From a candidate division TA06 bacterium SM23_40 (lineage in GTDB: Bacteria; LJUI01; SM1-40): 9,073 nucleotides of DNA. Shown in pieces: positions 2 to 7,269 of this stretch (positions within the stretch are counted from its first letter, which is position 1; each line of letters begins with the position of its first letter). The translations under genes were made by a program, and so were the position numbers. The stretch spans positions 1-9,073 of the forward strand of contig LJUI01000184.1 of NCBI GenBank assembly GCA_001303705.1, read 5' to 3'. The notes under the pieces are model-generated. The model worked only from the letters and a program-made list of their open reading frames with translations. It searched no databases and was not told the DNA's origin.

Positions 2-433
2 GCACACCTTGTGTTCGTCAATATGGGCGGAGGCCCTAAGGTGGGCTTTCATGAAAGGGGAAACACGCCCTGGTACCGGGCGATGTGCGATCTCAAGTGC
101 GATGCCGAAGGTGATTCGAGTATTGCCAATCCGCCTGACTGCTTCGCCACGATGAACTACACCATCTTCTACCCGCACCCGCTGGGGGACAGCGCACGCT
201 TTCACGCATGGGCGAGCGTCGTAGATCGAGCTGATACGGCCGATACCTCATATGGAGACGGTCGTATCCCTCTCTGGAAGTTCATGCAGTGCTGCGGGTT
301 CAGTGCCTCGGACGTCTCGTCGCAAGGAGGTGCGGGCAGCCGTCTCCTCACAGCGGAGGAGTTGCGCTATCTTACGAATCTCACGCTGCAGCACGGCGCG
401 AAAGGGCTTCTCTACTGGCGAGCCAACGCCTAG
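2..433 (+). CDS. Glycoside-hydrolase-like secreted protein, upstream part (5' cut by window, ends at in-frame TAG)
   Basis: The frame is open from position 2 to the TAG at 431-433, so the true start lies before the window. The last ~60 residues look like the end of a TIM-barrel glycoside hydrolase: a P-L-W-K-F-M-Q strand, a T-A-E-E-L-R helix, then the strand HGAKGLLYW. The GAKG-hydrophobic-YW pattern is usual in the last strands of GH-A-clan-like and agarase-like barrels. The exact GH family and catalytic residues cannot be named, because most of the barrel is outside the window. The reading frame continues without shift past the TAG into a sensible protein (434-2086), so this and the next entry are most likely one interrupted gene. 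A single base change at the TAG would join them. The family call is inference; the continuity of frame is seen directly. Confidence 0.7.
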   Translation, partial: AHLVFVNMGGGPKVGFHERGNTPWYRAMCDLKCDAEGDSSIANPPDCFATMNYTIFYPHPLGDSARFHAWASVVDRADTADTSYGDGRIPLWKFMQCCGFSASDVSSQGGAGSRLLTAEELRYLTNLTLQHGAKGLLYWRANA

Positions 434-3383: not shown

Positions 3384-3599
3384 TTGAAGGGCGTGTTCAC
3401 AATCGAGTACGGAAGTTATGATGCCGGTGAGTTCGTGCTGAAGGTTGCGGAGAGGGACATAGTTGCAGTTGTCGACGTGCGTCTGCGTTCTGTGGATCGG
3501 CAGCGGCTCTGCATCGGGAGGCCATCGTGGATGGGCCACCCTTTTGTGTTGACCTCTCAGGGGAAGCGTACTATTATGGTGGTGCACGAGGTCGACTGA
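3384..3599 (+). CDS. Small hypothetical protein, 71 residues, TTG start
   Basis: A TTG start at 3384 is preceded by GAGAGGGAGAGG (3362-3373) at about ten bases, a plausible ribosome site. The product is soluble with no signal or membrane segment, rich in beta-forming residues (KGVFTIEYG, ERDIVAVVDVRLR, KRTIMVVHEVD) and ending 34 bp before the tRNA gene. The alternating hydrophobic pattern and balanced composition look more protein-like than the surrounding random frames. I recognise no family and assign no function. The non-ATG start and short length leave real doubt. Confidence 0.4.
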   Translation: MKGVFTIEYGSYDAGEFVLKVAERDIVAVVDVRLRSVDRQRLCIGRPSWMGHPFVLTSQGKRTIMVVHEVD

Positions 3600-3633: not shown

Positions 3634-3727
3634 GCGCCTGTAGCTCAGCCGGACAGAGCAGCGGATTTCTAATCCGAGCGGATTTCTAATCCGCCGGTCG
3701 GGGGTTCGAGTCCCTCCAGGCGCGCCA
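3634..3727 (+). tRNA. tRNA-Arg(UCU) with a tandemly duplicated anticodon arm
   Basis: All cloverleaf parts are visible. Acceptor GCGCCTG (3634-3640) pairs with CAGGCGC (3717-3723), followed by discriminator G and encoded CCA (3725-3727). The D arm is GCTC/GAGC (3643-3659). The T arm is GGGGG-TTCGAGT-CCCTC (3700-3716) and the variable loop CGGTC (3695-3699). Between D arm and variable loop are two anticodon arms. Arm 1 is at 3661-3677, four pairs plus a G-A mismatch. Arm 2 is at 3678-3694, five pairs. Both loops are TTTCTAA with anticodon TCT (3668-3670 and 3685-3687), read as Arg for AGA/AGG. The gene is 94 nt; deleting one 17-bp unit gives a textbook 77-nt tRNA. Whether the 94-nt form is functional, processed, dead or an assembly error cannot be seen. 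AGA and AGG codons are used in the genes here, so the cell needs this activity from some locus. Confidence 0.85.
3660..3693 (+). repeat. Perfect 17-bp tandem duplication inside the tRNA gene
   Basis: The unit AGCGGATTTCTAATCCG occurs at 3660-3676 and again, without gap or mismatch, at 3677-3693. The identity stops exactly at both edges (3659 differs from 3676, 3677 differs from 3694). It covers the anticodon arm plus the preceding linker A. The unit is itself a near-palindrome, so both copies can fold separately or pair with each other. Confidence 0.95.
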
Positions 3728-3738: not shown

Positions 3739-4098
3739 GTTTGAGAGGTAGACCGTTTCAGAGGGACGGCTCTGCCTCCTTCTCTTCTTGGTGCGCCTTG
3801 TCGTTTGTGCAGGTCTGCGGAAAGGCTCTCATCTCAGAGCGACTGATCTCTCATGCGGTATGGAAACGTTGGGCCTCTGGGGTATCGTCTCGAAACCTCT
3901 GGACAGATCCGTGCCGGTCGTCTATTCTGAGTGCTGCCGTGGGTCGGGGATCTCGCCTCGATCGGCCTGCCCTGATCGGCGGAGTGTAAGCAATCAGTTC
4001 GGCCATCTCGAGCCCGGAAACCGGAGGTGGGGCAGGGATATTCTCCAAGCGCTGTAGTCGGGCATAGCCACGACATGTTGCAGAGAGAGGAGAGAGGG
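3728..4098. other. 371-bp stretch between the tRNA and the first repeat protein, no gene seen
   Basis: The open frames here (for instance 3732-3989 and 3788-4057) are rich in Trp, Cys, Arg and Ser, lack ribosome sites and show no domain pattern, so I treat them as random. The direct repeat GATCGGC occurs twice around 3959-3980 and a short CCGG-AAA-CCGG inverted repeat near 4015-4025. The only clear functional signal is the purine-rich ribosome site just before 4099. I see no convincing promoter or RNA motif. Confidence 0.4.
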
Positions 4099-5862
4099 AT
4101 GAGACCATTGGTGTTCGTGTTGGCGTTGCTGGTGCCCTTGACGGCAGGCGCTCAGATCATCTCGTTCGAACGCACTTATGGTGGGACAGAATCCGATGCT
4201 GGCTATTCGGTCGTGCAGGTTGCCGATGGGGGGTACGTCGTCGCCGGATATACGAAATCGTTCGGGGCGGACTCATCGGACATGTTGTGCTTCAAGGTTG
4301 ATGCAGTGGGCGACCCGGTATGGACGCGGCTGTACGCCGCCTCCCTTCAGGAGAGAGCCTTTTCGCTCGCGCAGACAGACGACGGGGGATTCATACTCGT
4401 GGGTCACACAGCCTCGTATACCGCACCCCCCCCGATCTGGGCTGATGTCTATGTGGTCAAGACAAACCAGTGGGGGGACACTCTTTGGACGTGCACCTAC
4501 GGCGGGGTGGAGGTCGATGAAGCCCAATCGGTTGCGCAGACGGCTGACGGAGGGTATATCATCGCAGGTAGCACCTTCTCATTCGGCGCTGGCGGTTACG
4601 ATGTCTGGCTGATCAAGACCAACTCGAACGGTGACACGGCATGGACGCGTACCTACGGCGGCCCTGACCGCGATAATGGATATTCAGTTGCTCAGACGGC
4701 TGATGGAGGATATCTCATTGCCGGAATGACAGACTCGTTCGGCGCCGGCGGCAATGATGTCTATCTGCTCAGGGCCGACAGCTTGGGTGACACGCTGTGG
4801 ACGCGCACCTATGGCGGGATTGGCTCCGATGTCGGGCGGTCGGTCGCACAGACAGGTGATGGAGGATACATCATTGCAGGATCAACTTTGTCGTTCGGCG
4901 CCGGCGGCACCGACGTCTATCTGGTCAAGACCGACTCGAATGGTGACACAGCGTGGACCCGCACCTTTGGGGCGGGTCTGCACGACAGTGGCTATTCGGT
5001 GGCTCAGACGGATGATGGGGGGTATATCGTCGCGGGTAACAGCGAATCCTTCGGCGTCGGCAGCAACGATGTCTGGCTGCTCAAGACCGATTCGAGCGGA
5101 GACACGGTCTGGACGCGCACCTACGGGGGGACGGGCTACGATGCTGGCGAATCAGTCGCACAGACGGCTGATGGAGGGTACATCATCGCCGGATCGACGC
5201 AATCCTTCGGCGCCGGCAGCAACGATGTCTATCTGATCAAGACCGACGCTAATGGGCAGGTCGGGGTGAACCATGCCCCGGATCTTGTCGATCAGGCGGA
5301 TACGACAGTTGCCGAGAATCAGTATCTGACATTCACGCTGGAGGCGATTGATCCGGACGGCGATAGCATCTTCTTCTTCTCTCCCGACCTGCCGGAGGGG
5401 GCGGCGCTCAATTCGCTCACCGGTCATTTCTGGTGGACGCCCACCTATGCTCAATCCGGTCTGTATACGGTGACGTTCATCGCGACCGACCTGGGGTATC
5501 CGGCCCTGTCTGATACGGAGCAGACGGACATTACGGTCACCGATGTTGTGGGGGTGGCAGATGATGAGGATGAGCTTGGCTCACTGGCGCAGTATCTTGC
5601 GCAGAATCGACCCAACCCGTTCGGGTCGTCGACCACGATCTCCTACTCCCTCAAAAGGCGGGGGCCGGCAAGTGTAGCCGTATACGACATCCGCGGCGCC
5701 CTCGTGCGTGAGCTCGTAGATGAGACGGTTGCTGCCGGGGTCCATCGAGTGATCTGGGACGGGCGCGACGGTCAGGGAAGAGAGGTCGGCTCAGGCATCT
5801 ACTTCTGTCGGCTCGAAGCCGGTGCGTTTACTGAAACGAGACGGATGGTCTTGTTGCACTGA
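4099..5862 (+). CDS. Secreted seven-repeat predicted beta-propeller with Ig-like and FlgD-like (T9SS type A) C-terminal domains
   Basis: The product is 587 residues. ATG 4099 is chosen because a purine-rich site (4083-4098) precedes it and a signal peptide follows (MRPLVFVLALLVPLTAGA, cleavage before Q19). Residues 26-387 are seven repeats of about 52 residues, each with TYGG, a D-x-G-x-S-V-A-Q-T turn, DGGY-hydrophobic-AG, SFGAG, DVYL-KTD and GDT-x-WTR. Seven blade-sized units suggest a closed seven-bladed propeller (inference). About 391-490 is a putative-Ig / cadherin-like domain (VAENQYLTFTLEAIDPDGD, TGHFWWTP, GLYTVTFIATD). After an acidic DDEDE linker, about 500-587 is a FlgD-like domain (QNRPNPFG, VAVYDIRG, VIWDGRDGQG, GSGIYFCRLEAG, tail TRRMVLLH), used as an outer-membrane export and sorting signal in T9SS-type bacteria. 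Its role is probably surface display or secretion; the ligand is unknown. It is the intact partner of the gene at 5969. Confidence 0.85.
   Translation: MRPLVFVLALLVPLTAGAQIISFERTYGGTESDAGYSVVQVADGGYVVAGYTKSFGADSSDMLCFKVDAVGDPVWTRLYAASLQERAFSLAQTDDGGFILVGHTASYTAPPPIWADVYVVKTNQWGDTLWTCTYGGVEVDEAQSVAQTADGGYIIAGSTFSFGAGGYDVWLIKTNSNGDTAWTRTYGGPDRDNGYSVAQTADGGYLIAGMTDSFGAGGNDVYLLRADSLGDTLWTRTYGGIGSDVGRSVAQTGDGGYIIAGSTLSFGAGGTDVYLVKTDSNGDTAWTRTFGAGLHDSGYSVAQTDDGGYIVAGNSESFGVGSNDVWLLKTDSSGDTVWTRTYGGTGYDAGESVAQTADGGYIIAGSTQSFGAGSNDVYLIKTDANGQVGVNHAPDLVDQADTTVAENQYLTFTLEAIDPDGDSIFFFSPDLPEGAALNSLTGHFWWTPTYAQSGLYTVTFIATDLGYPALSDTEQTDITVTDVVGVADDEDELGSLAQYLAQNRPNPFGSSTTISYSLKRRGPASVAVYDIRGALVRELVDETVAAGVHRVIWDGRDGQGREVGSGIYFCRLEAGAFTETRRMVLLH
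4174..5259 (+). repeat. Seven tandem ~156-bp coding repeats
   Basis: Units start at about 4174, 4330, 4495, 4651, 4807, 4963 and 5119. Five of the six spacings are exactly 156 bp (52 codons); unit 2 is 165 bp, with three extra codons beside a C8 tract. The last unit stops after the KTD strand at about 5259. DNA similarity between units is high in the GATGGAGG(A/G)TA, TTCGGCGCCGGC and GATGTCTATCTG segments, so unequal recombination could change copy number. Confidence 0.85.
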
Positions 5863-5914
5863 TGCGAATGAGGTCGCTCCGCAAGACGAGACGGATGGTG
5901 CTGTTGCGCTAATG
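5836..5914 (+). repeat. 50-bp-offset direct repeat: gene 3' end plus a second C-terminal tail remnant
   Basis: The stretch 5836-5864 (end of the FlgD-like domain, stop and two bases) is repeated at 5886-5914 with 25 of 29 identical bases. The second copy reads K-T-R-R-M-V-L-L-R-stop in frame 3, with its stop exactly 50 bases after the real one. The same arrangement, with the same offset, follows the second paralog at 7243-7321. The spacer GAATGAGGTCGCTCCGC is identical in both places. Confidence 0.8.
5862..5912 (+). other. Possible 16-codon mini-ORF coupled by TGATG to the upstream stop
   Basis: The ATG at 5862 overlaps the TGA of the repeat protein and reads MRMRSLRKTRRMVLLR to TAA 5910-5912. 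The counterpart after the second paralog has TGA directly after its first ATG but keeps MRSLRETRRMILLR from 7275. Changes in the last codons (CTG/CTA, CGC/CGA) are synonymous. Translation is not demonstrated; the simplest reading is a relic of a duplicated C-terminal tail. Confidence 0.25.
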
Positions 5915-5968
5915 TCATTTGACCCTATGAGGCAGCAGGCAGAACGGATTCCGCAGGGAGGAGAGACT

Positions 5969-7048
5969 ATGAGAGCGCTGACACTTCTGCTGGTTCTGCT
6001 GGTTCCGCTGACGGCGAGCGCCCAGATCACATTTGAGCGCACGTATGGGGGACCCTGGAAGGACAAGGGCTATTCGGTCACGCAGACTGATGGGGTATAT
6101 GTTGTCGCTGGACACACCTATTCCTTTGGCCCAGGCGGCTCTGCCGTCTGTCTGATCAGGACTGATGCATGGGGCGACGCGTTGTGGACGCGTACCTACG
6201 GCGGCTCAGGTCATGATTGTGGCTATTCGGTTGAGCAGACGAATGATGGAGGATACGTCATCGGTGGGTACACCAGTTCGTTCGGCGCAGGCAGCTATGA
6301 TGCATATCTGGTCAAGACAGATGCAACGGGCGACACGGTCTGGACGCGCACCTATGGCGGTTCGGGCGAGGAGTACGGTGAATCAGTCAAGCAGACGGGT
6401 GATGGTGGGTACGTGATTGCCGGGCACACCGACTCCTTCGGGGCAGGCAACGACGATGTGTATCTGATCAAGACAGACGCGACGGGGGACACGGTCTGGA
6501 CGCGCACCTACGGCGGGTCAGACGATGATTATGGGTATTCGGTTCAGCAGACAGGCGATGGTGGCTACATCATCGCCGGATACTCCGCATCCTTTGCCCC
6601 GAACAACGAACTTGTCTACCTTATCAGGACTGATGCATTGGGCGACACGTTGTGGACGCGCACGTACGGCGGGCTAGGCGAGGATCACGGGTATTCGGTT
6701 GAGCAGACGGGCGATGGCGGCTACGTCATAGCTGGATACACCGAGTCTTTCGGCGGAGACGGCGAGGTCTATCTGATCAGGACTGATGCATTGGGCGACA
6801 CGTTGTGGACGCGCATTTATGGTGGGTCGTATGTGGATGAGGGATTTTCGGTTGGTCAGACGACTGATGGTGGGTACATCATTGCCGGATCCAACGAATC
6901 GGTCCTCACGGGCAATATCGAGGTCTACTTGATCAAGACGGATGCTGATGGATATGTGCAGATCGGCGGGGATTCTTATGAGATCGGCCTGAGTACCAGT
7001 ACCTTGCCCAAAACCATCCTAATCCGTTTGGCTCGGTCACAACGATAG
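5969..7048 (+). CDS. Secreted six-repeat predicted beta-propeller, frameshifted before its FlgD-like domain
   Basis: ATG 5969 follows GGGAGGAGAG (5956-5965) and opens with MRALTLLLVLLVPLTASA (cleavage before Q19), nearly the same signal peptide as the gene at 4099. Six repeats of 51-52 residues start at about 6041, 6194, 6350, 6506, 6662 and 6815 with the same TYGG, DGGY, SFG, YLI-TD and GDT-WTR marks. Unlike its neighbour it has no Ig-like domain: the last repeat runs directly towards the sorting tail. As written, the frame leaves the true protein at about 6991, adds a meaningless LSTSTLPKTILIRLARSQR end and stops at TAG 7046-7048. The lost tail continues in frame 1 at 6991-7269. Adding one G to CTGAG near 6991 restores G-L-E-Y-Q-Y-L-A-Q-N and a 433-residue protein. 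It is 106 bp from its paralog and probably transcribed with it. Confidence 0.8.
   Translation: MRALTLLLVLLVPLTASAQITFERTYGGPWKDKGYSVTQTDGVYVVAGHTYSFGPGGSAVCLIRTDAWGDALWTRTYGGSGHDCGYSVEQTNDGGYVIGGYTSSFGAGSYDAYLVKTDATGDTVWTRTYGGSGEEYGESVKQTGDGGYVIAGHTDSFGAGNDDVYLIKTDATGDTVWTRTYGGSDDDYGYSVQQTGDGGYIIAGYSASFAPNNELVYLIRTDALGDTLWTRTYGGLGEDHGYSVEQTGDGGYVIAGYTESFGGDGEVYLIRTDALGDTLWTRIYGGSYVDEGFSVGQTTDGGYIIAGSNESVLTGNIEVYLIKTDADGYVQIGGDSYEIGLSTSTLPKTILIRLARSQR
6041..6960 (+). repeat. Six tandem ~156-bp coding repeats
   Basis: Units of 153, 156, 156, 156, 153 bp and a final partial unit match the repeats at 4174-5259 at protein level. The GGCGACACGTTGTGGACGCG segment is nearly identical in several units, so recombination within this gene and with the upstream paralog is easy. 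Confidence 0.8.
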
Positions 7049-7269
7049 CCTACTCGCTGGCAGGTCCGACAAAGGTCAGGGTGGCCGTGTACGACATCCA
7101 GGGTGCTCGTGTGCGAGAATTGGCATCCCGTGCCGCCTCCGCTGGTTTGCATCAGGTGGTATGGGACGGGCGAGACGGTCGTGGGATAGAGGTAGGCTCC
7201 GGCATCTACTTCTGCCGACTGGAGGCCGGCGAGTTCACCGAGACGAGACGGATGGTGTTATTGCGCTGA
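6991..7269 (+). pseudogene. Out-of-frame FlgD-like (T9SS type A) domain of the preceding gene
   Basis: Frame 1 from about 6991 reads EYQYLAQNHPNPFG, then TTIAYSL, VRVAVYDIQGARVREL, VVWDGRDGRG, GSGIYFCRLEAG and ETRRMVLLR to TGA 7267-7269. This matches the C-terminal domain of the gene at 4099 nearly position for position. There is no ribosome site or start before it, so it is not an independent gene. It is the end of the 5969 gene displaced by a one-base loss. The domain looks intact, with no stops and conserved key residues, so the shift is either recent or an error in the sequence. Confidence 0.8.

What the first reader, a model, noticed from the sequence alone, without database searches (positions are those of the whole stretch)
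3634..3727. tRNA-Arg(UCU) gene with two complete anticodon arms
A perfect 17-bp tandem duplication places two identical UCU anticodon arms in series between the D arm and the variable loop; everything else is canonical, including the encoded CCA. Removing either unit gives a normal 77-nt tRNA, so the ancestral form is clear. A mature 94-nt five-arm tRNA would be very unusual. If real, it could be inactive, cut back by an unknown processing step, or work with altered decoding (for example frameshifting). Many 17-nt excision registers give the same product, so a splicing-like repair cannot be told apart by sequence alone.
Basis: partly seen in the sequence, partly recalled or inferred. Interest (0 to 1): 0.85.

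Follow-up and report, generated by a model that had tools for sequence, protein, structure and literature searches.

The report
tRNA gene with doubled anticodon arm
In the genome of an uncultured bacterium, the only arginine tRNA gene found for the codons AGA and AGG carries its codon-reading arm twice in a row; if the assembly is right, this cell either reads these codons with an unusual five-arm tRNA or carries a freshly damaged copy of a gene it needs.

Summary
Window 3634-3727 is a tRNA-Arg(UCU) gene with a perfect 17-bp tandem duplication of nt 26-42 (3660-3676/3677-3693). Everything outside it is intact, including A20, C35, U36, encoded CCA and a promoter-like site. One correction: only the second arm has all five pairs; the first ends in a G.A mismatch.

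No other tRNA-Arg(UCU) was found in the 89.8%-complete genome. Its other tRNAs are single-copy once a probable contaminant contig is set aside. AGA/AGG make up 2.4% of codons and fall at conserved arginines, so the function is needed. RtcB and the tRNA-splicing endonuclease were not found, which weakens a splicing-like repair. The duplication is absent from all ~30 tRNA-Arg(UCU) genes of other phyla read here. A five-arm covariance model found no second case in about 1,180 genomes, and a pattern scan of the GTDB R220 collection found none.

Most likely this is a recent duplication of one hairpin. If the gene works, the first arm probably decodes while the second sits where class II tRNAs carry their long variable arm; engineered tRNAs of that shape are active. 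An assembly or strain artefact, or an inactivated gene with an unseen good copy, cannot be excluded: one contig, no reads, no relatives.

The parts
3634..3727 (+). tRNA-Arg(UCU) gene, 94 nt including encoded CCA
3634..3659 (+). 5' acceptor strand, T8-A9, D arm (nt 1-25), with G18G19 and A20 (arginine identity base, general knowledge)
3660..3676 (+). first copy of the 17-nt unit (nt 26-42); anticodon TCT at 3668-3670; 4 pairs plus G.A
3677..3693 (+). second copy of the 17-nt unit; anticodon TCT at 3685-3687; five pairs with C43 at 3694
3695..3699 (+). five-nucleotide variable loop CGGTC (nt 44-48)
3700..3716 (+). T arm GGGGG-TTCGAGT-CCCTC, five pairs
3717..3727 (+). 3' acceptor strand, discriminator G73 and encoded CCA
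3549..3577 (+). promoter-like site TTGACC-17-TATTAT (10 of 12), about 57 nt upstream of the tRNA; 0.1 expected in the region
   Evidence: consensus match only

Best explanation
A recent slippage or template-switch event duplicated exactly one anticodon arm (nt 26-42) in the sole detected tRNA-Arg(UCU) gene. The 94-nt transcript keeps an intact acceptor/T/D core and end processing. At least part of it folds as a five-arm tRNA: one arm (probably arm 1, which forms first during transcription) docks under the D stem and reads AGA/AGG, while the other sticks out at nt 43/44, where class II tRNAs carry their long variable arm. ArgRS still finds A20, C35 and U36. Shown: the sequence, the intact core, no second UCU gene found, the need for AGA decoding. 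Inferred: transcription, folding, charging, decoding.
For: The tRNA core, CCA and promoter-like site are intact. No other UCU gene turned up in 2.88 Mb; apart from CAU, the remaining set is single-copy outside contig C142. AGA is 9.3 and AGG 14.5 per thousand codons, and they fall at conserved Arg positions, e.g. AGA at DnaK 460, RpoB 318 and 398, MnmG 515 (read by eye). The duplication adds one clean arm with both 7-nt loops kept. At 94 nt the gene is about as long as this genome's own tRNA-Ser genes (87-93 nt). Engineered tRNAs with an anticodon-arm hairpin as variable arm are active in E. coli (PMC7590224). The contig belongs to this genome: paralogs at up to 78% identity on many other contigs, and the tRNA encodes CCA like nearly all native ones.
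Against: No second case was found: none in about 1,180 genomes with the five-arm model, and none in a UCU pattern scan of the GTDB R220 collection, so such duplications seem strongly selected against. In silico the two arms prefer to fuse into one long hairpin that buries both anticodons (-41.0 against -36.1 kcal/mol). Variable-loop aptamer insertions into ordinary tRNAs left only marginal activity (PMC7590224). There is no transcript, read or relative evidence.
Confidence: 0.38

Rival explanations
1. Assembly, library or strain-mixture artefact: the duplication is absent, or in a minority, in the living population.
For: One 9-kb contig in a 189-contig, 89.8%-complete draft; the same contig carries an in-frame UAG and a 1-nt frameshift in other genes; no second case anywhere.
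Against: A 17-bp tandem unit needs reads that span the junction at any usual k-mer length, and a 34-bp array fits easily in one short read (general knowledge); the junction is clean; other short perfect tandem duplications occur in the genome.
Confidence: 0.27
2. Recently inactivated gene: the extra hairpin spoils the tRNA, and a normal tRNA-Arg(UCU) lies in the missing part of the genome.
For: Several expected tRNAs (His, Leu-UAA, Leu-CAG, Thr-GGU) are also missing from the draft; neighbouring genes are broken; the fused fold hides both anticodons.
Against: Native tRNAs other than CAU are single-copy once C142 is set aside, so a second UCU gene is not expected; no decay elsewhere in the tRNA and the two units are identical.
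Confidence: 0.22
3. The 94-nt precursor is cut back to 77 nt by a splicing-like excision of 17 nt between the two equivalent loops.
For: In the fused fold the two anticodons face each other in a 3x3 loop, so equal cuts and ligation would give the exact normal tRNA.
Against: Duplicated hairpins tend to have this geometry anyway; in silico duplications of other tRNAs fold better as one fused unit in 26 of 62 cases. RtcB and tRNA_int_endo were not found, and the fold is not a bulge-helix-bulge. Other RNA ligases were not searched for.
Confidence: 0.05
4. Remnant of an integrated element that used the anticodon arm as its attachment site.
For: Integrases often target tRNA genes (general knowledge).
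Against: No integrase recognised in the window, no other copy or fragment of this tRNA in the genome, and nothing lies between the two units.
Confidence: 0.03

Closest known systems
Ordinary bacterial tRNA-Arg(UCU), 77 nt
   Same: Acceptor, D and T arms, A20, anticodon loop, CCA; about 30 genes from other phyla were read here.
   Different: All of those have a single anticodon arm; this one has an extra 17 nt.
Class II tRNAs (Ser, Leu, Tyr) with a long variable arm
   Same: Extra hairpin between the anticodon arm and the T arm if arm 1 is used; total length 94 against 85-93 nt in this genome.
   Different: The extra hairpin is a copy of the anticodon arm, followed by a normal 5-nt variable loop; arginine identity.
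Engineered allo-tRNAs with a pseudo-anticodon arm as V-arm (Mukai 2020, PMC7590224)
   Same: Two anticodon-arm hairpins in one tRNA, in series.
   Different: Synthetic, on an allo-tRNA chassis with a 9/3 acceptor branch and a true V-arm stem; the two anticodons differ.
Arabidopsis chloroplast tRNA-Ser(GCU), reported as having 'two anticodon arms' (PMC10228390)
   Same: The phrase and the idea of two decoding arms.
   Different: As far as the text read here shows, the second 'arm' lies within an ordinary long tRNA-Ser of 88 nt and reads a stop codon; no tandem duplication is described.
Intron-containing archaeal and eukaryotic tRNAs
   Same: Extra sequence near the anticodon.
   Different: No bulge-helix-bulge and no splicing endonuclease or RtcB found in this genome.

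Membership tests
tRNA (Rfam RF00005) | score above the gathering cut-off with acceptor, D, anticodon and T arms | tested here: met
   58.2 bits against 29; ARAGORN agrees
Class II tRNA | variable region of more than 10 nt forming a stem-loop | tested here: inconclusive
   If arm 1 is the anticodon arm the region after it holds a 17-nt hairpin plus 5 nt, but the anticodon type is not Ser, Leu or Tyr and the hairpin is a duplicate
Allo-tRNA / tRNA-Sec-like | 12- or 13-bp acceptor branch in a non-7/5 arrangement (8/4, 9/3, 8/5) | tested here: not met
   The acceptor branch is 7/5
BHB intron-containing tRNA | bulge-helix-bulge at the splice sites | tested here: not met
   The fused fold is 7 bp, 3x3 internal loop, 5 bp, 4-nt loop
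BHB intron-containing tRNA | tRNA-splicing endonuclease and ligase in the genome | tested here: not met
   PF01974 and PF01139 not found; the genome is 89.8% complete
tRNA pseudogene | decayed core or missing conserved bases | tested here: not met
   All stems and conserved bases outside the duplication are intact
tRNA pseudogene | not transcribed or not charged | not testable with these tools
   No expression data

The most novel reading that the evidence does not exclude
A natural, working five-arm tRNA: the mature 94-nt tRNA-Arg(UCU) with two anticodon arms in series is the cell's only reader of AGA. It switches between isomers in which either arm decodes, and may be partly mischarged with serine because it combines G73 with a variable-arm-like hairpin.
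Probability: 0.3. Interest if true: 0.75.

Novelty: new variant of a known kind. Interest (0 to 1): 0.45.

Why it matters
If the 94-nt tRNA works, it shows that the ribosome, ArgRS and EF-Tu tolerate a second anticodon arm in a natural tRNA, which I found described only for engineered tRNAs and one loosely similar chloroplast report, and it shows a one-step path from a class I tRNA towards a class II-like shape. If it does not work, it is a clean example of damage to a needed tRNA gene in a draft genome. Both readings can be tested with a single cloned gene.

Tried and rejected
Chance repeat: rejected. Contamination of the contig: rejected by paralogs elsewhere in the genome and by the encoded CCA; a tetranucleotide correlation of 0.84 is low but about equals that of contig C42 (0.85), which carries the same gene family. 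Integration-site remnant: no fragments of the tRNA elsewhere. Recoding of AGA/AGG to another amino acid: conserved Arg positions argue against it. Recoding of UAG: same-frame stops between coding-like segments look in good part like adjacent genes, and UAG ends 70 of 199 long genes. Same duplication elsewhere: pattern hits in genome and viral collections are not tRNAs. Splicing: the enzymes were not found. A first energy script had the T stem shifted by one base; the corrected values are. One survey search reached a phylum with a single genome and added nothing.

Full report
OBSERVATION. The stretch 3634-3727 reads GCGCCTG TA GCTC AGCCGGACA GAGC [AGCGGATTTCTAATCCG][AGCGGATTTCTAATCCG] C CGGTC GGGGG TTCGAGT CCCTC CAGGCGC G CCA. 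The bracketed 17-mers are identical. ARAGORN calls one tRNA-Arg(TCT) over the whole 94 nt with the anticodon at position 35, that is, using the first arm. Rfam's tRNA model matches at 58.2 bits, with 18 extra nucleotides placed inside the anticodon loop. The acceptor stem has 7 pairs, the D stem 4 and the T stem 5; CCA is encoded. Collapsing the repeat gives an ordinary 77-nt tRNA. The base before the first unit (C) differs from the last base of the unit (G), and the base after the second unit (C) differs from its first base (A), so the duplicated unit is uniquely nt 26-42. As a result the first arm closes with G27.A26' instead of G27-C43 and has four pairs; the second has five. The unit length equals a whole anticodon arm, so the duplication adds one clean hairpin.

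CHANCE AND BACKGROUND. In 336 kb sampled from 20 contigs of the same genome I counted five perfect tandem duplications of period 10-60 bp. At that rate about 0.05 would be expected in all tRNA genes of the genome. The event belongs to a normal class of mutation but is unexpected at this place.

GENOME CONTEXT. The window lies on contig 2 of a draft genome of 2.88 Mb in 189 contigs, 89.8% complete and 1.3% contaminated. No other genome of its phylum appeared among the relatives searched. Contig 2 belongs to the genome: its DUF5122/FlgD_ig protein has paralogs on many other contigs at up to 78% identity. Nearly all tRNAs of the genome encode CCA, as this one does; the exceptions are four on contig C142 and one tRNA-Arg(TCG) on contig C104. 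A genome-wide Rfam search gave 43 tRNA genes. The others include Arg anticodons ACG, CCG and TCG, and none has TCT. A direct search with the 94-nt sequence found no other copy or fragment of this tRNA. The apparent redundancy of tRNA-Thr(CGT), Gly(GCC), Pro(CGG) and Pro(GGG) comes from contig C142, whose tRNAs lack CCA and lie beside a tyrosine recombinase and a type I restriction system; it is probably a contaminant. Without it, only CAU is present twice. His, Leu-UAA, Leu-CAG, Thr-GGU and Arg-CCU tRNAs were not found, in line with roughly 10% missing sequence, so an unseen second UCU gene is possible but not expected.

NEED FOR THE FUNCTION. AGA and AGG make up 9.3 and 14.5 of every thousand codons in 199 long genes. 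In DnaK, MnmG and RpoB of this genome many of these codons align with arginines conserved in solved bacterial homologues, for example AGA at DnaK 460 (the A-P-R-G motif), RpoB 318 and 398 and MnmG 515; the non-Arg positions vary among Lys, Asn, Gln and others, with two Ser in MnmG (compared by eye). So the cell needs a tRNA that brings arginine to AGA.

OTHER GENOMES. About 30 tRNA-Arg(UCU) genes from other phyla, fetched, have one arm. I built a covariance model of five-arm tRNAs from 21 ordinary tRNAs with an in-silico doubled arm plus the window. The window scores 96.6 bits; the best of the other matches, nearly all ordinary tRNAs, 80.3. Searches of 386, 395 and 398 genomes found no further match above 81.2 bits, and the few listed below the window are 77 nt long. 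Their sensitivity is limited: only about ten candidates per genome were scored in full, and the only positive control is the window itself, which also belongs to the model's training set. A pattern for a doubled UCU loop followed by a T arm, run over the GTDB R220 collection of 84,980 species, gave 49 hits and over IMG/VR 50 hits; the flanking sequences show that none is a tRNA. The tool warns that records of this same genome may be left out.

STRUCTURE. With standard RNA energies the five-arm cloverleaf has -36.1 kcal/mol and the collapsed 77-nt cloverleaf -31.7. A version in which the two arms fuse into a single long hairpin has -41.0. The fused form hides both anticodons in a 3x3 internal loop. 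Two things may work against it in the cell: arm 1 is complete before arm 2 is transcribed, and anticodon-loop modification (such as t6A37, general knowledge) would disfavour U-A pairs in the loop. Neither was tested. If arm 1 is used, the second hairpin leaves the tRNA where class II tRNAs carry their long variable arm, and the total length is close to this genome's tRNA-Ser genes (87-93 nt). If arm 2 is used, the first hairpin is an insertion between the D stem and nt 26, for which I know no parallel.

PROCESSING. Excision of 17 nt between equivalent points would restore the normal tRNA. But RtcB and the tRNA-splicing endonuclease were not found, the fold is not a bulge-helix-bulge, and duplicated hairpins tend to offer this geometry anyway. 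Other RNA ligases and anticodon nucleases were not searched for.

LITERATURE. A review of natural non-canonical tRNAs does not contain the word stem 'duplicat' in its main text (PMC7609411). Engineered allo-tRNAs carrying a tRNA-His anticodon arm as variable arm are active in E. coli (PMC7590224), while aptamer insertions into the variable loop of a few ordinary E. coli tRNAs gave only marginal activity (cited in the same paper). A chloroplast tRNA-Ser(GCU) has been described as having two anticodon arms (PMC10228390), but within an 88-nt tRNA-Ser. SerRS recognises a long variable arm together with G73 (PMC7609411); this tRNA has G73, so mischarging with serine is a testable side prediction, not a finding.

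VERDICT. The sequence feature is real in the assembly and was correctly described, apart from the unequal arms. What it does is not settled by sequence. I put 0.38 on a recent duplication in a gene that still works at least partly as a five-arm tRNA, 0.27 on an assembly or strain artefact, 0.22 on an inactivated gene with a normal copy unseen, 0.05 on processing back to 77 nt and 0.03 on an integration remnant. The lack of any second case and the absence of relatives hold the interest at a middle value.

Noticed in passing
window 431-433: An in-frame UAG interrupts an otherwise open frame from 11 to 2086; it looks like a nonsense mutation in a large, probably exported protein.
   Followed up: partly
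window 6990-7050: A frameshift (about one base) separates a DUF5122 repeat protein (5822-7048) from its FlgD_ig tail (7081-7269); its neighbour paralog (4027-5862) is intact.
   Followed up: partly
L091 (contig C142) 6170-6604: Four tRNA genes without encoded CCA, beside a tyrosine recombinase and a type I restriction system, in a genome whose tRNAs nearly all encode CCA: probably a contaminating contig.
   Followed up: partly
L104-L111 and other contigs: A large expanded family of DUF5122 / FlgD_ig proteins, 109 matches across the genome; tRNA genes on C2, C5, C42 and C128 lie on the same contigs as members of it.
   Followed up: no
L087 (contig C5) about 1636: Another in-frame UAG between two coding-like segments of a repeat protein (158 and 470 codons), with no obvious restart.
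   Followed up: no
L009 (contig C104) 1498-1574, minus strand: tRNA-Arg(TCG) appears to be followed by CCT instead of CCA, unlike the other native tRNAs.
   Followed up: no
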